Shown here one piece after another: positions 1,449 to 62,626 of a stretch of DNA of 64,000 nucleotides; position 1 is the stretch's first letter; every line of letters begins with the position of its first letter. The notes under the pieces were generated by a model. That model was not told the origin of the DNA. It searched no databases and saw only the letters and a list, made by a program, of their open reading frames with translations. The position numbers and the translations under genes are program-made. Origin of the DNA: Rufibacter immobilis (GTDB lineage Bacteria > Bacteroidota > Bacteroidia > Cytophagales > Hymenobacteraceae); assembly GCF_003721565.1 (NCBI RefSeq), contig NZ_RJJE01000002.1, forward strand, positions 62,001 to 126,000, written 5' to 3'.

Positions 1449-1508
1449 AGGCATTCATAAAAAAAGAGGGAGCAAATTATTATGCTCCCTCTTTTTTTAT
1501 GAATGCCT
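1449..1508. terminator. perfect 26-bp hairpin terminator after the zinc peptidase gene
   Basis: Arms 1449-1474 and 1483-1508 are perfectly complementary around an 8-nt loop, with a GC-rich centre (gagggagca) and A/T runs on both sides. It begins about 10 nt after the stop codon of the peptidase gene on the minus strand. The A and T tracts allow it to work as a terminator in either direction. Confidence 0.8.
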
Positions 1509-9399: not shown

Positions 9400-9460
9400 A
9401 AGTTCTAATAAAACAAGAAAGGGAAGCATATTGCTTCCCTTTCTTGTTTTATTAGAACTT
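9400..9460. terminator. perfect 29-bp hairpin after glmS
   Basis: Arms 9400-9428 and 9432-9460 are fully complementary around a 3-nt loop, with gggaagca/tgcttccc in the centre. It starts 8 nt after the glmS stop. The outer right arm (9449-9460) is also the left end of the next hairpin (9449-9512), so the two structures exclude each other. Confidence 0.8.
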
Positions 9461-9500
9461 CCGTTTAGAGGCTCTTTTTAGAAAAAGAGCCTCTAAACGG
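9461..9500. repeat. 40-bp palindromic repeat, copy 2 (symmetric, extended)
   Basis: A perfect core palindrome ccgtttagaggctcttttt / aaaaagagcctctaaacgg with a 2-nt loop. Flanks 9449-9460 and 9501-9512 extend it to a 31-bp perfect stem. Confidence 0.95.
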
Positions 9501-9603
9501 AAGTTCTAATAAGCTGGCTGGTTCTGCTTCGCACTCAACGGCAGAAGTTATGATACGGTGTTGTTCCCATCTTCGTCCCCTAGGCGTACTGATTAGCCAA
9601 AGT

Positions 9604-16912: not shown

Positions 16913-16951
16913 GCGTTTAGCGGCTCTTTTTCCTAAATAAGGCCTAAAACA
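16913..16951. repeat. 40-bp palindromic repeat, copy 6 (asymmetric)
   Basis: Conserved arm gcgtttagcggctctttttcc; the other arm has diverged to aaggcctaaaacag. It lies between the gltX stop and its terminator. Confidence 0.85.
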
Positions 16952-18298: not shown

Positions 18299-18326
18299 AA
18301 AACACCGCCTTAAAAGGCGGTGTTTT
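18299..18326. terminator. hairpin terminator after the AIM24 gene
   Basis: aaaacaccgcc pairs with ggcggtgtttt around ttaaaa. It abuts the next palindromic repeat, whose left flank uses the same T run. Confidence 0.7.
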
Positions 18327-18366
18327 GCGTTTAGGGGCTCTTTTTTGAAAAAGAGCCCCTAAACGC
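18327..18366. repeat. 40-bp palindromic repeat, copy 7 (symmetric, extended)
   Basis: gcgtttaggggctcttttt / aaaaagagcccctaaacgc. Flanks tttt and aaaa extend the stem to 18323-18370, between convergent AIM24 and GH3 genes. Confidence 0.95.
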
Positions 18367-18384
18367 AAAAATGGAGCAATTAAC

Positions 18385-24979: not shown

Positions 24980-25004
24980 TATTCTACTGCCTTCCCCGTG
25001 CGGT

Positions 25005-25044
25005 GCGTTTAGCGCCTGTTTTTGGAAAAAGAGCCCCTAAACGC
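25005..25044. repeat. 40-bp palindromic repeat, copy 11 (symmetric, extended)
   Basis: gcgtttagcgcctgttttt / aaaaagagcccctaaacgc; flanks gcggt and accgc extend it to 25000-25049, between convergent PH-domain and TPR genes. Confidence 0.95.
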
Positions 25045-25058
25045 ACCGCATGGTTTCC

Positions 25059-29230: not shown

Positions 29231-30496
29231 TTATTCTTCTGCGGGGGCAGATCTGACGGAAAGATGCACGGTGTTGATGCGGTGCTCATCCATGGAAAGG
29301 ATTCTGATTTCAAAAGGCGGAACCACCACCACATCGCCGGCGGTGGGTATTTCTTCCAGTACAGACAAGATAAACCCGCCCAAAGTTTCATAGTCGCCCT
29401 CTGGTAGGCCTAGGTTGTATTTCTCATTGAGGTAGTCTATCTCCTGCCGGGCGCTGAACAGGTAAGATCCGGTTTGGGCCAAAGATTGCTCCAGCAGGTC
29501 TTCCTCATCATATTCATCGTTGATGTCGCCCAGGATTTCCTCCATCACGTCTTCCAGGGTCACCAAGCCGGAGGTACCGCCAAATTCATCTACCACCAGC
29601 ACAATGCTGCGGTGTTCGGTAATGAATTTCACGAAGAGTTCCCGCGCCAGCATGTTCTCGGGCACGGCTTCCAGAGGTGTCAGGATCTGCTCCAAGGAAG
29701 TGGGGTTGTTGAAAAGGGAAAACTGGTGGCAGTAGCCTAAGATATGGTCCAGGGAGTCCTGGTAGATCAGAATTTTGGAGTGGCCAGTTTCAATAAACGC
29801 CTGCCGCAGCACCTCCACGCCTTCGTCCAGCTCAATGGCGTCTATCTCAATGCGGGGCACCATACATTCCCGCACCTTCACGTTTTTGAACTCCAACGCA
29901 TTATGGAAGATCTTACTGTCTACTTCATTGGTAGGCGTCAGCAAGGTTTCCTCCGCTGTAGGGATTTTCAGCCCAAAGGGTTGAAAGGCTACGGCATTGC
30001 CTACTACCTCCGGGGCGTTTAGCGGCTCTTTTTCTGAAAACAGCCCTAAAACAGCGTGCACTACGGCAGTAATTGGGTACAGCAACACCACCATAATTGC
30101 CATTGGCCCCGCCACCACGTTAAACAGCCGGATGGGTGAGGCTACGTTGGCCCACATGCCTATGGTAAGCAGCAGAAGCCAGGAAGATACTACTGCCGCA
30201 AGACCAGCCAGCAAAACCGCTGCCCCAGGCACTACGTGCGACTGCAACTGCCCATAGAAGCTCCCATACAGACCAAGACCCAGCAACAGCAACGCTGCCC
30301 CCATTCCAATCTGAATGGTAAGCGCTAGAATACCTTCGCGGCGCAGCAGGAAACTACGTATGGATGGCTTCTGCTCCGCTGTTTCCAGTTGGATGTAAGG
30401 TTTCCCAACTTGCCGCAGGGCGACTTCTGCCATACTGAACAGGAGAAGCAGCAGCACTCCTACCCCAGCGGTCATGTAAGAGGAGACAAGGTCCAT
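29231..30496 (-). CDS. CNNM/CorC (GldE-like) membrane protein with repeat-derived linker
   Basis: A 421-residue protein of the CNNM/CorC family, resembling Bacteroidota GldE. Seen: an N-terminal DUF21-like membrane part (hydrophobic segments to about residue 145), two CBS domains (VKVRECMVPRIEIDAIELDE..., then RSIVLVVDEFGGTSGLVTLEDVMEEILGDI) and a C-terminal CorC_HlyC domain (LPEGDYETLGGFILSVLEEIP). I chose the ATG at 30496; a TTG three codons upstream is also possible. A palindromic repeat at 30015-30053 encodes AVLGLFSEKEPLNA in frame, about residues 148-161, in the linker between the membrane part and the CBS domains. Confidence 0.85.
   Translation of the reverse strand: MDLVSSYMTAGVGVLLLLLFSMAEVALRQVGKPYIQLETAEQKPSIRSFLLRREGILALTIQIGMGAALLLLGLGLYGSFYGQLQSHVVPGAAVLLAGLAAVVSSWLLLLTIGMWANVASPIRLFNVVAGPMAIMVVLLYPITAVVHAVLGLFSEKEPLNAPEVVGNAVAFQPFGLKIPTAEETLLTPTNEVDSKIFHNALEFKNVKVRECMVPRIEIDAIELDEGVEVLRQAFIETGHSKILIYQDSLDHILGYCHQFSLFNNPTSLEQILTPLEAVPENMLARELFVKFITEHRSIVLVVDEFGGTSGLVTLEDVMEEILGDINDEYDEEDLLEQSLAQTGSYLFSARQEIDYLNEKYNLGLPEGDYETLGGFILSVLEEIPTAGDVVVVPPFEIRILSMDEHRINTVHLSVRSAPAEE
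30015..30053. repeat. 40-bp palindromic repeat, copy 13, inside a coding sequence
   Basis: gcgtttagcggctctttttc and aaaacagccctaaaacagcg. It lies within the CNNM/CorC gene and is translated in frame on the minus strand without stop codons. Confidence 0.88.
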
Positions 30497-30507
30497 CAGA
30501 ATCAAAT

Positions 30508-45330: not shown

Positions 45331-46680
45331 TTACTGCTCTTTGGTGAACGTGAACTTGCCGCCGCCCTGCTTCAGGGTAAATTGATCATAGGCTGCCCCG
45401 GCAGCCGACTTGTTGAACTCCATCACGATGCCGGCAGGCTCAAACACAAACTCGCTTTCGCTGCGGGCCTCCAGGTCTATGGTGCCCTGCCCGGTTGCCT
45501 GTGCCACCAGTTTCTCCCCTTCTTTCCTGACCACTATCTTAAGCGGGAACTGCTGCGAAGAGAAAGTACCTTCATACTTAGCCAAATCCAGCTTCAGGTT
45601 CTTAGGGGCAGCGTACGTGGGTACTTTATACGGGAAGTTAAACGCTATGCTCAGGATACCTACCAGCACGTCGTTGGCATTGGTGTTCACTCCGTTGAAG
45701 GTAGAGACCATGGTTACTTTCTGAGTAGGATAATAGCTCATCATGGCAGAAAACCCGTCAATCACGCCCCCGTGCCCGTACCCGGTGTATGGCCCCAAAG
45801 GCAGCGGAGTAAGAGCCATGCCGTAATTGTCTTTCATGCTGGTCATCTTGGCCAGAGAAGCCTCAGAAACCAATTTATGCTGAAACAGTGCCTGTATGAA
45901 CCTGGCTAGGTCCTGGGTAGTAGACACCACCGCACCGGCTCCGTGCGGAATGCTCATATCCGTCTCCGGGACTTCGGTCCATTGGTCGTTTATAAACCGA
46001 AACGAAGAGGCCTCCTGTTGGGCACTGTTGATTTTACCGCCGTAATATGTGTTTCTGAGGCCTAATTTATCCACAATGTTTTTCTTAAGCACCTCAGCGT
46101 AAGACTGTTTTGTTACCTTTTCCACAATATAGCCCAGCAGTACATAATTGGTGTTGCTGTACTCATACTTGGTGCCCGGAGCAAAACTACTTTTCTGCGC
46201 TAACATGATCTCCAGCATTTGGGCCTGCGTTTTGGGTTGGTTCAAGTAGAGGCTGTATGCTGGGTCTGTGGTAAAGCTTTTCAATCCGCTGCGTTGGGTA
46301 AGCAGATGCTCTACAGTAATGGAAGAGGCGTTCTCAAACTGCGGGAAGAACTTAGCCAGCGGTGTTTCTAACGTCAGTTTCTTCTGTTCCACCAGTTGCA
46401 TAACCATGACCGCTGTAAAGGTTTTGGAGATAGAACCTACCCGAAATTTAGTACTTGTGGTTGCCTTTGTTTTCTGACCATCTTTGATGGATTGATACCC
46501 GATGGCCCGGTTGTAGACCAGCTGATCCCCCTGGTAGAGCGCCACCGCGCCCATCACTTTGTTCTTCTCTTCCAATACCGTGAAGAGGCTATCCATCTTA
46601 AGTTTGTTGAATGACTGTTGCGCCTGACTTACCAGCGGCAGGGCCAACAGCAGCCCAAACATTATTGAATAAGTTTTCAT
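45331..46680 (-). CDS. serine hydrolase (beta-lactamase/PBP-like)
   Basis: A 449-residue exported serine hydrolase of the class C beta-lactamase/AmpC-like family. I chose the ATG at 46680 (MKTYSIMFGL), which gives a proper signal peptide ending SQAQQ. Seen: VGSISKTFTA with the catalytic S83-x-x-K86, EYSNTNYVLLGYIVEKVT (the YSN triad), and HGGVIDGFSAMMSYYPTQKV (His-Gly-Gly box). A C-terminal DUF3471-like domain (LDLAKYEGTFSSQQ) completes the protein. It is a peptidase or esterase of unknown substrate; penicillin resistance should not be assumed. Confidence 0.88.
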   Translation of the reverse strand: MKTYSIMFGLLLALPLVSQAQQSFNKLKMDSLFTVLEEKNKVMGAVALYQGDQLVYNRAIGYQSIKDGQKTKATTSTKFRVGSISKTFTAVMVMQLVEQKKLTLETPLAKFFPQFENASSITVEHLLTQRSGLKSFTTDPAYSLYLNQPKTQAQMLEIMLAQKSSFAPGTKYEYSNTNYVLLGYIVEKVTKQSYAEVLKKNIVDKLGLRNTYYGGKINSAQQEASSFRFINDQWTEVPETDMSIPHGAGAVVSTTQDLARFIQALFQHKLVSEASLAKMTSMKDNYGMALTPLPLGPYTGYGHGGVIDGFSAMMSYYPTQKVTMVSTFNGVNTNANDVLVGILSIAFNFPYKVPTYAAPKNLKLDLAKYEGTFSSQQFPLKIVVRKEGEKLVAQATGQGTIDLEARSESEFVFEPAGIVMEFNKSAAGAAYDQFTLKQGGGKFTFTKEQ

Positions 46681-46798
46681 GATAGGAGATTTAAGATAAG
46701 ATTGGAGAATGGGCGGGGAATTGGTACACGTCTTGCTGGAAGGCGCCAAAGAAGTACTTCTGGAAGAAGCCTAGGAAATCAAATAAAACAAGGCGGTC

Positions 46799-46838
46799 CT
46801 GTTTAAGGGCTACTTTTCAAAAAAGAGCCCCTAAACAG
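46799..46838. repeat. 40-bp palindromic repeat, copy 20 (symmetric, extended)
   Basis: ctgtttaagggctactttt / aaaagagcccctaaacag. Flanks aggcggtc / gaccgcct extend the stem by 8 bp to 46791-46846, the clearest locus-specific extension. Confidence 0.95.
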
Positions 46839-46861
46839 GACCGCCTCCCTTGCTGTTTTTA

Positions 46862-46916
46862 CTGTGGATTAATTCTGATCCGCTATTGGGTTATCCACAA
46901 ACAGCAACGTGGATAA
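46862..46916. promoter_or_regulatory. DnaA-box-like cluster
   Basis: TTATCCACA at 46891-46899 is a perfect E. coli-type DnaA box. An inverted near-match, cgtggataa (46908-46916), and another, tgtggatta (46863-46871), lie within the same 55 bp. Boxes 2 and 3 also form an inverted repeat ttatccac/gtggataa around 9 nt. It lies between the ABC ATPase stop and the serine hydrolase start. Confidence 0.4.
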
Positions 46917-47609
46917 TTAGACTGTGAAGTAGCTTTCCAGCTGTTGGAGCGTGGTTTCATTGGTTTGCATATCTTCCACCACCTGGCCTTTTTCCAGCAG
47001 CACAATGCGGTCACAGACTTCAATCACGTGGCTCAGGTCATGGCTGGAGATAAGCATGGTCATGCCCTGGCGCTTAAGGTCTTTGAGCAGGTTCTTGAGC
47101 CTGATCTGGGAACTTGGGTCCAGGTTGGCGAAGGGCTCGTCCAGAATCAACAGCTCGGGATCAGACATAGCGGCGGCGGCCACGCCCACTTTTTTCTGGT
47201 TCCCCTTGGAGAAGTCTCTGATGTACTTGCGCTGCTCCAGAATCTCACCGTTGAAGAAATCCCGGAAGCGGTCCAGGAACGCCTGCACATCGCCGGGCGT
47301 GAGGCCGTTCAGTTTGCCAATGAAGTTGAAGTATTCTTCGGGGGTGAGGAAATCGATCAGGAAGCCTTCATCCAGGTGCGAGCCGGTGTACTGTTTCCAG
47401 TCCTCGGTGGAACGCACATCTTCGCCTTTGCTGAACACCTGCCCTTTGGAGGGACGGATCAGGTCCAGAATCATCCGGAAGAAGGTGGTCTTACCCGCCC
47501 CGTTGTTGCCTACCAGGCCAATGGTTTCGCCTTTCTGAACCGTGAGCGCCGGAATATTGACTACCGTTACGCCGTTGTAGATTTTTTGGAGGTCGCGTAC
47601 TTCTATCAT
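46917..47609 (-). CDS. ABC transporter ATP-binding protein
   Basis: A 230-residue ABC ATPase. Seen: Walker A GNNGAGKT at residues 34-41, DFSKGNQKKVGVAAAAM as a variant signature (FSKGN instead of LSGGQ), Walker B LLILDEPFANLDP and the H-loop ISSHDLSHV. It is followed 37 nt upstream in coordinates by the DUF5687 membrane protein gene (start 49134), with which it is probably a transporter pair. Substrate unknown. Confidence 0.92.
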   Translation of the reverse strand: MIEVRDLQKIYNGVTVVNIPALTVQKGETIGLVGNNGAGKTTFFRMILDLIRPSKGQVFSKGEDVRSTEDWKQYTGSHLDEGFLIDFLTPEEYFNFIGKLNGLTPGDVQAFLDRFRDFFNGEILEQRKYIRDFSKGNQKKVGVAAAAMSDPELLILDEPFANLDPSSQIRLKNLLKDLKRQGMTMLISSHDLSHVIEVCDRIVLLEKGQVVEDMQTNETTLQQLESYFTV

Positions 47610-49602: not shown

Positions 49603-49819
49603 AACTGCTTCTACTACCCGCACCGTTTCCAGTCTTCCCATCGAGCGCCTCGCTTGTGGCCACAGATAGGCAGTTACTAAGTACTAACTTCAGCTACATG
49701 GCCGCAAGGGCAGTGCGAGAGGGGAAGACGGGGCCCCGCGGCCGTGAGCGCTTGCCGCCAAAGATGAAACATCACAGCCCATAAACCCATAGACAAACGC
49801 CACCGCGCAGGCATCAGCC
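49603..49819. repeat. 216-nt direct repeat, copy A
   Basis: It shares three blocks with 51310-51525 in the same order and orientation: gagcgcctcgcttgtggcca at its left, a GC-rich block tggccgcaagggcagtgcga (and 34 nt beyond) in the middle, and cataaacccatagacaaacg near its end. Within the copy, cgcttgtggcca and tggccgcaagg are complementary, and gtcttccc pairs with gggaagac, so it can form a long hairpin. Confidence 0.85.
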
Positions 49820-51281: not shown

Positions 51282-51309
51282 CGCTATGCCATCATTAGTT
51301 TCAAACTGG

Positions 51310-51525
51310 AACTGCTCTTACTACCCGCACCTATTCCAGTCTTTCCCTAGAGCGCCTCGCTTGTGGCCAAGTAAGAAAGAAGCTAAGAGCCAACTACACT
51401 GGCCTGGCCGCAAGGGCAGTGCGAGAGGGGAAGACGGGGCCCCGCGGCCGTGAGCGCTTACCAGAAGAAACGCAGCAACACAGTCTATAAACCCATAGAC
51501 AAACGCCACAGCCAAGGCATCAGCC
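51310..51525. repeat. 216-nt direct repeat, copy B
   Basis: Same order and orientation as 49603-49819, with small indels and substitutions. The GC-rich block (from tggccgcaagggcagtgcga on, 54 nt) is nearly identical. It also keeps the gtctttccc / ggggaagac pairing, so the hairpin is retained despite sequence drift. Confidence 0.85.
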
Positions 51526-51565
51526 TAATCCATCAGCCAAAGGCAAACCACCCAACGCAAAAATT

Positions 51566-54750: not shown

Positions 54751-54826
54751 AATGCAGTCCTTTTCTTAGCGCACCTGAAATCATTCCAGGTTTAACTCTT
54801 TTGCTGTTCCTCCAGTACTAGTGAGC

Positions 54827-56191
54827 ATGCTGTCTACCGCTACTGCCCCCGTTTCTAAGATGTCTCTCCTGTCGTGGCTCCGCCAGCCGGTAGACAACGC
54901 GCCGTTGGTGGTGTTCCGGTGGTGTTTCGGGTTGCTGCTGTTTCTGGAGACGGGCGGGGCTATTTTGACGGGTTGGGTGAAGAAGAACCTCATAGAACCT
55001 ACGGTACATTTTCCCTTCATCGGGTTTGAGTGGCTCAAACCGCTGTCCGGCAACGGCATGTACTTCTACTACGGGACAATGGCGCTGCTGGGCCTGCTGG
55101 TGATGGTGGGCTTCTACTACAGAGCCAGTCTTACGCTATTTACCTTGCTTTGGTGGGGAGCCTACCTTATGCAGAAAGCGGCTTACAACAACCACTACTA
55201 CCTCTTGCTGGTGCTGTGTTTTCTCATGCTGCTGGTACCGGCCCACACCTATGCTTCTATAGACGCCAAACGCAACCCACCGCTAAAATCCCTTTCCTGC
55301 CCCCGTTGGTGTCTGCTGGTGTTTGTGGTGCAGATGACCATTGTGTATACCTATGCCGCCATTGCCAAAATAAACGAAGACTGGTTGGCGGGTACTCCGG
55401 TTTCTATCTGGTTCTCCAACAAAAGCCATTATTGGCTCATCGGGGGACTGTTGCAGCAGGACTGGTTTCAGAAGCTGGTGGTGTACGGCGGTATTTTCTT
55501 TGATTTGCTCATTGCCCCCTTGCTATTATGGCGGCGAACTCGGATTTGGGCCTTTTTCCTGGCGGTGTTCTTCCACGGGTTCAACTCGGCGGTGTTCCAC
55601 ATTGGCATTTTCCCGTATCTGGCGCTGGCGCTGTGCCTGTTCTTTTTTCCGCCGGAGCAGATTAGAAAGATTTTCCTGCGCCGCAAACCCATGCTGCCTG
55701 TTTCTGCACCTGCGTTAGCGCCTGCCCCTCCTGCCTTCAAAGAGAAAGCGGTGCTTCTGTTGCTGGCCCTCCATCTGGTGGTGCAGCTTGTTTTGCCCAT
55801 GCGGCAGTGGTGGTTCCCGGGCAATACCAACTGGACCGAGGAAGGCCACCGCATGTCCTGGCACATGATGCTCAGGAGCAAGTCTGGGTATGCCACCTTT
55901 AAGGTGGAGGCAGACGGTAACGCATTTTGGGAGCACCCTGAAACCCACCTTACGCCCAAACAGTCCCGCTCCGTAGCCACCCGCCCCGATCTGATTTGGC
56001 AATACTGCCAGTTCCTGGCGCAGAAGTACCAGCAGAAAGGCTATAAACAAGTGAAAGTATTCGCGTATACCCACGTAAGCCTCAATAACCGTCCGGCGCA
56101 GGCCTTGGTAGACTCTACGGTTAATCTGGCGGCAGTGCCCTGGCTCACGCACCAACCTTCGCCGTGGGTGGTGCCGTTACAGGAAAACTAA
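54827..56191 (+). CDS. HTTM / VKGC-like membrane protein
   Basis: A 454-residue membrane protein of the HTTM (vitamin-K-dependent gamma-carboxylase-like) family. Seen: APLVVFRWCFGLLLFLETG at the start, FPFIGFEWLKPLSGNGMYFYYG, YLMQKAAYNNHYYLLLVLCFLMLLVPAH, a signature region with Asn-Asn-His-Tyr, and about six helices followed by a C-terminal beta-rich domain. Eukaryotic VKGC carboxylates glutamates; the bacterial homologues have mostly untested activity. An ATG at 54827 is preferred over the GTG at 54821. It stands alone on the plus strand. Confidence 0.85.
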   Translation: MLSTATAPVSKMSLLSWLRQPVDNAPLVVFRWCFGLLLFLETGGAILTGWVKKNLIEPTVHFPFIGFEWLKPLSGNGMYFYYGTMALLGLLVMVGFYYRASLTLFTLLWWGAYLMQKAAYNNHYYLLLVLCFLMLLVPAHTYASIDAKRNPPLKSLSCPRWCLLVFVVQMTIVYTYAAIAKINEDWLAGTPVSIWFSNKSHYWLIGGLLQQDWFQKLVVYGGIFFDLLIAPLLLWRRTRIWAFFLAVFFHGFNSAVFHIGIFPYLALALCLFFFPPEQIRKIFLRRKPMLPVSAPALAPAPPAFKEKAVLLLLALHLVVQLVLPMRQWWFPGNTNWTEEGHRMSWHMMLRSKSGYATFKVEADGNAFWEHPETHLTPKQSRSVATRPDLIWQYCQFLAQKYQQKGYKQVKVFAYTHVSLNNRPAQALVDSTVNLAAVPWLTHQPSPWVVPLQEN

Positions 56192-56217
56192 CCTTTTCCC
56201 GCGGGCTGAAGAGAAGT

Positions 56218-56257
56218 GCGTTTAGGGGCTCTTTTTGGAAAAAGAGCCCCTAAACGC
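56218..56257. repeat. 40-bp palindromic repeat, copy 27 (symmetric, extended)
   Basis: gcgtttaggggctcttttt / aaaaagagcccctaaacgc with loop gg. Flanks agaagt / acttct extend it to 56212-56263, a 25-bp perfect stem. Confidence 0.96.
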
Positions 56258-56480
56258 ACTTCTGGTATTCACGTGAAAAAGCGGCTTTTCTCTCTTCCCT
56301 CCTCCAGCTCTAACCTTTTACCGCAGAAATAGTAAGTGCACCTAAGCGGCTTTGCCCATGGCTTTTAGTGTAATGGCGTTCCTTTTCTCCTTGCCTCTGG
56401 AAAGCTCCCCGTTTCTGGTTAGAGGAGAATCTGTAGTCACGCAGAAGCTTTTACCTCAACTCAATTTCTAGCGAATTCAT

Positions 56481-62441: not shown

Positions 62442-62563
62442 AGAGATAATTTTAGCTAAAGGGTAAAAATCTGGCTGCAGCTTTTGGAAACAGCTTCTTT
62501 ACTTGCTCAAAGCTACAGTAAAATAAAGAAACAGCCTTTTTGTTTTTGTGTTTAGTTAAAAAA

Positions 62564-62603
62564 GCGTTTAGGGGCGCTTTTTGGAAAAAGAGCCCCTAAA
62601 CGC
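62564..62603. repeat. 40-bp palindromic repeat, copy 32 (symmetric, extended)
   Basis: gcgtttaggggcgcttttt / aaaaagagcccctaaacgc; flanks aaaa/tttt extend it to 62560-62607, 24 nt from the ribonuclease R stop. Confidence 0.94.
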
Positions 62604-62626
62604 TTTTCAGGGTGAGCAGCAACCTG

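What the first reader, a model, noticed from the sequence alone, without database searches (positions are those of the whole stretch)
46791..46846. Locus-specific palindromic extension of the repeat arms
Outside the shared core, flanking bases differ at each locus yet stay self-complementary. Examples: aggcggtc/gaccgcct here, agaagt/acttct at 56212-56263, gcggt/accgc at 25000-25049, ttattagaactt/aagttctaataa around 9449-9512. Chance pairing of 5-12 extra bases at several sites is unlikely. One explanation is template-switch copying that turns imperfect palindromes into perfect ones; another is selection on the RNA hairpin. Compensatory core changes (ccg/cgg, gcg/cgc, ctg/cag) fit both.
Basis: partly seen in the sequence, partly recalled or inferred. 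Interest (0 to 1): 0.7.

Follow-up and report, generated by a model that had tools for sequence, protein, structure and literature searches.

The report
Terminator hairpins built on repeated palindrome
At the ends of many genes in the bacterium Rufibacter sits a short mirror-image DNA repeat, and at some sites its flanks also pair, often with different letters in different species, most likely because evolution keeps an RNA hairpin that ends transcription rather than the letters themselves.

Summary
In 464 kb of this Rufibacter genome, 44 of 157 copies of the repeat have at least 5 self-complementary flanking bases; swapping flanks between copies predicts 3.5. The shared core is a rigid 36-bp inverted repeat: 1141 strict matches in this genome, 70-1334 in each of 15 other Rufibacter, 0-1 in each of 82 genomes outside the genus.
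At 46791-46846 the hairpin is in the same place in 14 of 15 sister species, with outer letters that differ among most of them yet still pair in most. By eye, a T-rich sense-strand tail follows in 13 of the 14. In 12 aligned species 19 of 25 pairs changed on both sides.
Among 754 intergenic copies, extension goes with a fully paired core and gene 3' ends, and in tandem copies near a stop with a sense-strand U-tract. Best reading: the extension is the lower stem of an intrinsic terminator whose apex is the repeat, kept by selection on pairing. A G-U/A-C test was inconclusive. Template switching may contribute (suggestive locus 9400-9512) but is not shown. The bare 36-mer's function is unknown.

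The parts
46801..46836 (-). 36-nt shared core hairpin, apex of the reported stem
   Evidence: matrix scan; positional ortholog in 14 of 15 sisters
46791..46800 (-). outer stem, 3' arm on the sense (-) strand
   Evidence: 10 of 10 paired with 46837-46846; covarying in 12 species
46837..46846 (-). outer stem, 5' arm on the sense (-) strand
   Evidence: same
46779..46790 (-). T-rich tail (TGTTTTATTTGA) just 3' of the stem on the - strand
   Evidence: sequence
46917..47609 (-). gene whose transcript the hairpin would end: ABC transporter ATPase
   Evidence: PF00005, E 9.1e-23; 92-96% amino-acid identity in 6 sisters
56212..56263 (+). extended hairpin, 25-nt perfect arms, 20 nt after the stop of 54821-56191; no clear U-tract
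   Evidence: RNA fold z -11.3
24999..25050 (.). extended hairpin between convergent genes; in sisters G002, G004 and G014 other paired flanks at the same site
   Evidence: fold z -7.0
9449..9512 (+). extended hairpin, 31-nt perfect arms; its left arm overlaps the terminator-type hairpin 9400-9460
   Evidence: 12-mer AAGTTCTAATAA present three times
9400..9460 (+). separate classical terminator-type hairpin, 29-nt perfect arms; a shorter one stands here in G002 and G004
18323..18370 (.). extended hairpin (TTTTGC/GCAAAA) right after a separate terminator-type hairpin; flanks unpaired in G002 and G010
62560..62607 (-). extended hairpin; the same kind of flank (AAGC/GCTT, 4 or more pairs by eye) also in 6 of 6 sisters
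16915..16950 (.). example of an unextended, asymmetric copy (one arm in the own dialect, the other nearer the sister dialect)

Best explanation
The locus-specific, still self-complementary flanks are the lower part of one RNA stem whose apex is the shared 36-nt palindrome. At these sites the fused hairpin works as an intrinsic (often bidirectional) terminator or 3'-end hairpin of the upstream gene. RNA polymerase transcribes past the stop codon, the long stem folds, and the T-rich stretch after it releases the transcript. Selection acts on the pairing and not on the letters, so loci and species drift to their own stems by compensatory change. Shown: pairing beyond chance, positional orthology with covarying stems at 46791-46846, and the link of extension with a perfect core, a sense-strand U-tract and gene 3' ends. 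Inferred: that transcription actually ends there, that the constraint is on RNA, and that point substitution under selection rather than template switching supplied most changes. Copies without extension (most of the family) are not explained by this and probably have another, perhaps DNA-level, reason to exist.
For:: on 12 of 15 orthologous rows (3 with hairpins of 34-35 nt dropped), 88.0% of cells pair; 19 of 25 pairs changed on both sides; 67 double-changed cells against 22.8 shuffled, 0 of 500 shuffles; sliding the partners gives at most 57.3% paired; same place in 14 of 15 sisters; by eye outer pairing of at least 4 (one mismatch or wobble allowed) in 11 of the 14 (shorter in G003, G005, G012) and a T-rich tail in 13 of the 14 (weak in G005 and G012, absent in G009). 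(345 tandem copies within 150 nt of a stop): at least 5 T in the 9 nt after the stem on the sense strand in 36 of 95 copies with extension 3 or more, against 14 of 95 on the antisense side; 15 of 250 and 13 of 250 for unextended. One search, with the same ten 8-nt windows for every copy: sense 53 of 95 against 29 of 250 (p 2e-16); antisense 23 of 95 and 24 of 250. (754 copies): extension of 5 or more in 1 of 194 copies with at most 9 of 16 core pairs and in 36 of 62 with 16 of 16; 4 of 92 in divergent against 97 of 662 in other intergenic regions, p 0.005; a separate terminator coexists in 5 of 44 extended and 34 of 122 unextended own copies (p 0.037); fold z -7.0 to -16.1 for five stretches.
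Against: G-U against A-C on the sense strand does not single out RNA: in extended copies the core shows 48 to 26, but pairs slid out of register in the same copies show 666 to 461, about the same ratio; the first test over own tandem copies gave 104 to 88, p 0.28. 22 of 60 copies extended by 5 or more have no U-tract even by the lenient count, among them 56212-56263 by eye, and antisense U-tracts are also raised (23 of 95). The separate-terminator contrast is not significant in sisters (0 of 14 against 27 of 141, p 0.13). Some stems are far longer and more perfect than termination needs (up to 36-nt perfect arms elsewhere), which fits template switching better. The simple terminator scan found only a small inner stem at this locus, no more than its shuffles (1 against 0.7). 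Covariation was counted at one locus only. No transcript data.
Confidence: 0.66

Rival explanations
1. Template switching during replication copies one arm onto the other and so lengthens and perfects the palindromes. Pairing is then a by-product of mutation, or mutation supplies perfect stems that selection keeps.
For: Long error-free stems (31-nt arms at 9449-9512; up to 36-nt arms at other terminator-like hairpins). Three copies of a 12-mer at 9400-9512. The extended share differs between species: 20% own (C1 sample), 17% G012, 12% G005, 9% G009, 5% G014. No G-U excess over a slid baseline, as expected if whole arms are copied. The mechanism is described for RNA stems in PMC8794818 (abstract and passages seen).
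Against: As sole cause it does not predict the sense-strand U-tract or the shortage in divergent regions. Third copies near stems are not in excess (5 of 119 against 4 of 119 controls; a simple arm copy would leave none). Block changes could not be traced: the closest pair is 87.8% identical. There the hairpin at the reported locus keeps its outer stem letters, with one compensated pair and a few uncompensated core differences, while the site at 25 kb differs by many bases in both arms and cannot be decided.
Confidence: 0.28
2. The repeat inserts into the loop of terminators that are already there, so that the flanks are the old, locus-specific terminator stem.
For: Composite anatomy: repeat inside a locus-specific stem with a T-rich tail.
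Against: No empty terminator without the core was seen at the reported locus: 14 of 15 sisters have the core there and the 15th (G008) shows no such hairpin. Extension depends steeply on how well the core itself pairs, which insertion does not predict.
Confidence: 0.05
3. The extension serves a DNA-level structure (cruciform or a site for a dimeric protein), the same on both strands.
For: The 36-bp spacing is rigid (215 of 225 own copies), and half-site words of 10-14 nt outside detected pairs are about as rare as chance. Neither class of copies shows a G-U excess over the slid baseline.
Against: For extended copies: the sense-antisense asymmetry of the U-tract. Outer letters differ from locus to locus, so a protein could not read them by sequence.
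Confidence: 0.12
4. Extensions are longer subfamilies of the repeat that share flanking sequence.
For: The own consensus does run on for 3-4 bases (TTGC/GCAA).
Against: The swap null includes that shared part and still predicts 3.5 against 44 observed; the longer extensions (8 or more) listed differ from site to site.
Confidence: 0.02

Closest known systems
Intrinsic (Rho-independent) transcription terminators
   Same: Stable hairpin after the stop codon, T-rich tail on the sense strand as a group, pairing kept while letters change at the one locus counted.
   Different: The upper part of the stem is a copy of a genus-wide 36-nt repeat; some stems are very long; 22 of 60 copies extended by 5 or more lack a U-tract by a lenient count. 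Activity untested.
REP elements (GTAG- and CGTC-tagged palindromes, RAYT-associated; PMC3733652, passages seen)
   Same: Short (36 nt) palindromes, about 5 per 10 kb; 159 of 225 own copies lie within -45 to +150 nt of a gene 3' end.
   Different: No unpaired GTAG or CGTC tag in the flank composition; no enrichment beside RAYT-like genes; G006 has 387 strict copies and no Y1 transposase hit.
DNA uptake sequences in inverted pairs that form terminators (Neisseria, Pasteurellaceae; PMC3630211 in search listing only; the pairing as terminators recalled)
   Same: Hundreds of copies, species-specific dialects, inverted pairs after genes.
   Different: Half-sites outside pairs are no more frequent than chance: 153 of 153 GTTTAGSGGCTSTT words lie in detected pairs.
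Template-switch-made RNA hairpins (PMC8794818, abstract and passages seen)
   Same: Perfect stems and multi-base compensatory differences.
   Different: No block event could be traced here; the U-tract asymmetry points to selection.

Membership tests
Intrinsic terminator (extended copies) | Stable RNA hairpin 3' of a coding sequence | tested here: met
   Fold z -7.0 to -16.1 for five stretches; extension 97 of 662 in tandem and convergent against 4 of 92 in divergent regions
Intrinsic terminator (extended copies) | U-tract directly after the stem on the sense strand | tested here: met
   As a group 53 of 95 against 29 of 250; not in every copy, for example 56212-56263
Intrinsic terminator (extended copies) | Pairing conserved by compensatory change among orthologs | tested here: met
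   One locus, 12 species
Intrinsic terminator (extended copies) | G-U pairs tolerated on the sense strand more than A-C (RNA-level constraint) | tested here: inconclusive
   48 to 26 in the core of extended copies, slid baseline 666 to 461; own tandem copies 104 to 88
Intrinsic terminator (extended copies) | Transcripts end there | not testable with these tools
   No transcript data on hand
REP (GTAG/CGTC) element | Unpaired GTAG or CGTC tetranucleotide at one end | tested here: not met
   Flank composition of 139 own copies: position -1 is C 78% / T 21%, -2 is G 54% / C 35%, no such tag
REP (GTAG/CGTC) element | Association with a RAYT (Y1 transposase) gene | tested here: not met
   19 of 20 fetched loci examined: 36-mer within 350 nt upstream 4, downstream 10, both 2, against 37%, 52% and 20% of 690 background genes; G006 has no Y1 hit. 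The one own Y1 gene has 36-mers about 250 nt away on both sides
REP (GTAG/CGTC) element | Short extragenic palindrome in many copies | tested here: met
DNA uptake sequence | Single copies outside inverted pairs, also in coding sequence | tested here: not met
   words of 10-14 nt outside pairs 0-4, expected 0-2.7
Template-switch-generated palindrome | Block-wise change of one arm into the reverse complement of the other, seen against a close relative | tested here: inconclusive
   Closest pair 87.8% identical; 35 orthologous copies compared, no event could be resolved
Known RNA family | Match to an Rfam 15 model | tested here: not met
   0 matches in the window at gathering scores

The most novel reading that the evidence does not exclude
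The 36-mer is a genus-specific genomic signal at the 3' ends of a large share of Rufibacter genes, read at the DNA level by an unknown factor. Its consensus appears to have been rewritten in place at hundreds of sites in this species: the own dialect GTTTAGGGGCTGTTTTT stands where sisters have GTTTTAGGCCTGTTTTC-like copies, with one-arm hybrids in between (compared site by site only in the window; genome-wide by pattern counts). That would mean concerted change by co-evolution with its reader or by a conversion process, and terminator hairpins would be built on top of it secondarily.
Probability: 0.3. Interest if true: 0.75.

Novelty: new variant of a known kind. Interest (0 to 1): 0.45.

Why it matters
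One repeat present hundreds of times, with a built-in partner strand, offers many parallel tests of how RNA stems keep pairing while their letters turn over, by compensatory substitution or by template switching. It also exposes a genus-wide 36-bp palindrome family with species dialects, for which the paper searches made here listed no description (open-licence PubMed Central texts only, listings capped).

Tried and rejected
Uptake-sequence idea: rejected, lone half-sites no more frequent than chance. REP/RAYT membership: tested, not met. Insertion of the repeat into old terminators: no empty site found at the reported locus. Sense-strand G-U against A-C: own tandem copies 104 to 88; in the larger set all tandem copies 355 to 298 (p 0.03) and extended ones 49 to 27 (p 0.015), but, run while checking this report, showed that out-of-register pairs in the same copies have nearly the same ratio (666 to 461), so this test is counted as inconclusive and my confidence in the RNA-selection reading was lowered from 0.70 to 0.66 (template switching raised from 0.25 to 0.28, DNA structure from 0.10 to 0.12). 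The lenient U-tract count (53 of 95 against 27 of 250) used more windows for extended copies; one search repeats it with equal windows (53 of 95 against 29 of 250). Separate-terminator test: weak. An own-lineage burst of palindrome perfection looked likely from the window regions (19 perfect inverted repeats with arms of 20 or more in 464 kb own against 4 in 400 kb of sisters), but a wider sample showed G005 as high (11 in 200 kb) and others lower (2-4 in 200 kb), so it is not specific to this species. Third-copy test for template switching: no excess. Viral contigs: no match. The consensus terminator scan was uninformative at the reported locus. Genes for the counts were called with a simple ORF scorer of my own, so the gene classes carry some error. 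Hairpins were found with weight matrices trained on these same copies (shuffled controls 0-1 hits), so core conservation is partly built into the counts; the extension is scored outside the matrix.

Rows dropped: 3 of 15 orthologous rows (G005, G009, G015; hairpins of 34-35 nt). One search used a structure shifted by two columns and was repeated correctly; its row for a slide of -2 is the same result. In one search the script read 19 of the 20 loci fetched (L098 was left out). The output was cut, so the G002 row for the 56 kb site was not seen; the output was cut too.

Full report
What is there. The window lies in a Rufibacter genome (contig 11 of G000, 4.77 Mb in 17 contigs; the genus is inferred from named records that hold the pattern, 9 of 10 of them Rufibacter and one Sabulibacter). 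The shared core is a 36-nt inverted repeat, GTTT-N5-C-N3-TTT-N4-AAA-N3-G-N5-AAAC. That pattern occurs 1141 times in this genome and 70-1334 times in each of 15 other members of the genus. In 82 other genomes of the family and order it has 0 or 1 hit each, and the reversed pattern 0-1. A matrix scan finds about 5 copies per 10 kb, 215 of 225 own copies with the same central spacing, and none in shuffled own sequence. The own species has its own dialect: 492 hits of a strict own pattern against 0-8 in each sister.

Is the flank pairing more than chance? Yes. Swapping left and right flanks between copies keeps all shared letters, and predicts 3.5 of 157 copies with a run of 5 or more; 44 were seen. 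Position by position the excess sits at -2 to -6. It is a property of a minority: 48 of 225 own copies and 14 of 231 in the sister window regions, and 5-20% by species in larger samples.

What the orthologs say. The reported hairpin is the 3' flank of an ABC-transporter ATPase gene (46917-47609, minus strand). In 14 of 15 sister species the hairpin is in the same place, with outer letters that differ among most of them. By eye the outer pairing is at least 4 in 11 of those 14 (shorter in G003, G005, G012), and on the sense strand a T-rich stretch follows in 13 of 14 (weak in G005 and G012). On 12 aligned species (three rows with a shorter hairpin dropped) 19 of 25 pairs changed on both sides, 67 cells against 22.8 in shuffles, 88% of cells paired against at most 57% when partners are slid. 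Other sites vary. 62560-62607 keeps a similar flank in 6 of 6 sisters. At 25 kb three of five sisters have other paired flanks. 56212 and 18323 look newly extended in this species, as far as the sister rows were seen (part of the output was cut).

What extension goes with. Over 754 intergenic copies (own 464 kb, six sister window regions of 400 kb together, four further 200-kb stretches), extension is tied to a perfect core: 1 of 194 copies with at most 9 of 16 core pairs, 36 of 62 with 16 of 16. In the 345 tandem copies within 150 nt of a stop it is tied to transcription direction: T-rich tails on the sense side in 36 of 95 copies extended by 3 or more against 14 of 95 on the antisense side, and 15 and 13 of 250 for unextended copies; with the paired end included and equal windows, 53 of 95 against 29 of 250 on the sense side and 23 of 95 against 24 of 250 on the antisense side. 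Extension is rarer in divergent regions, 4 of 92 against 97 of 662. A separate terminator is less often present beside extended own copies, 5 of 44 against 34 of 122 (p 0.037), with the same direction but no significance in sisters, 0 of 14 against 27 of 141. The predicted RNA stems are very stable. A test that could have pinned the constraint to RNA did not: G-U exceeds A-C in extended copies (49 to 27; 48 to 26 in the core), but out-of-register pairs in the same copies have nearly that ratio (666 to 461).

How it most likely works. The extension is the lower stem of an intrinsic terminator or 3'-end hairpin whose apex is the repeat; selection holds the pairing. Shown are the sequence signals above; inferred is termination itself. 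Weak points: 22 of 60 copies extended by 5 or more lack even a lenient U-tract, antisense U-tracts are raised too (which bidirectional terminators would explain), some stems are longer and more perfect than termination needs, and covariation was counted at one locus.

Template switching. A published mechanism makes and repairs RNA stems in this way (PMC8794818, abstract and passages). In its favour here are the error-free long stems and the 9400-9512 site, where two neighbouring hairpins share a 12-mer present three times. Against it as sole cause are the U-tract asymmetry and the shortage in divergent regions; third copies are not in excess (5 of 119 against 4 of 119). The closest genomes, at 87.8% identity, are too far apart to see single events. 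It remains a likely contributor.

The bare repeat. Most copies are unextended and imperfectly paired, yet keep rigid spacing and letters (partly by the way they were found). Half-sites outside pairs are no more frequent than chance. They are not tied to RAYT-like genes and lack the REP tags described in PMC3733652 (passages; composition). In asymmetric own copies the conserved arm is stop-proximal in 39 of 55 (p 0.003). Its function is open, and the species-wide dialect change at shared positions is the more novel part. No description was found in the listings of the paper searches made.

Noticed in passing
window 51300-51530 and 49603-49819: A second, longer interspersed repeat (about 200-300 bp, looks structured by eye): 10-49 matches in each of 16 Rufibacter genomes, with at most 40 candidates scored per genome; no Rfam match in the window.
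   Followed up: partly
window 46847-46916: Cluster of TTATCCAC-like words (they resemble DnaA boxes, recalled) between the terminator and the ABC gene, also visible in most sisters. GC skew shows no clear switch in the window.
   Followed up: partly
window 45331-46749: Beta-lactamase-family (PF00144) gene right after the terminator, without a tblastn match in the fetched orthologous region of 6 of 6 sisters.
   Followed up: no
G000 C1 7924-7997, 8979-9038, 62021-62083, 360041-360107 and others; window 1449-1508: Other terminator-like hairpins have very long perfect arms (26-36 nt in these); at C1 64074-64125 the stem runs 8 nt into the neighbouring 36-mer.
   Followed up: partly
window 16915, 21846, 22436, 37671, 59115: Asymmetric copies: one near-invariant arm (mostly GTTTAGCGGCTCTTTTT), one degenerate sister-like arm; the conserved arm is stop-proximal in 39 of 55 unambiguous cases.
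   Followed up: partly
window 30017-30052: A 36-mer inside a predicted coding sequence (29231-30505, minus strand); further copies inside called ORFs in the own C1 stretch and in sisters.
   Followed up: no
centre of the own 36-mers: The central two bases avoid being complementary (6% against 34% expected, z -7.9); on the sense strand of symmetric copies they are mostly GG or CC (47 of 67).
   Followed up: no
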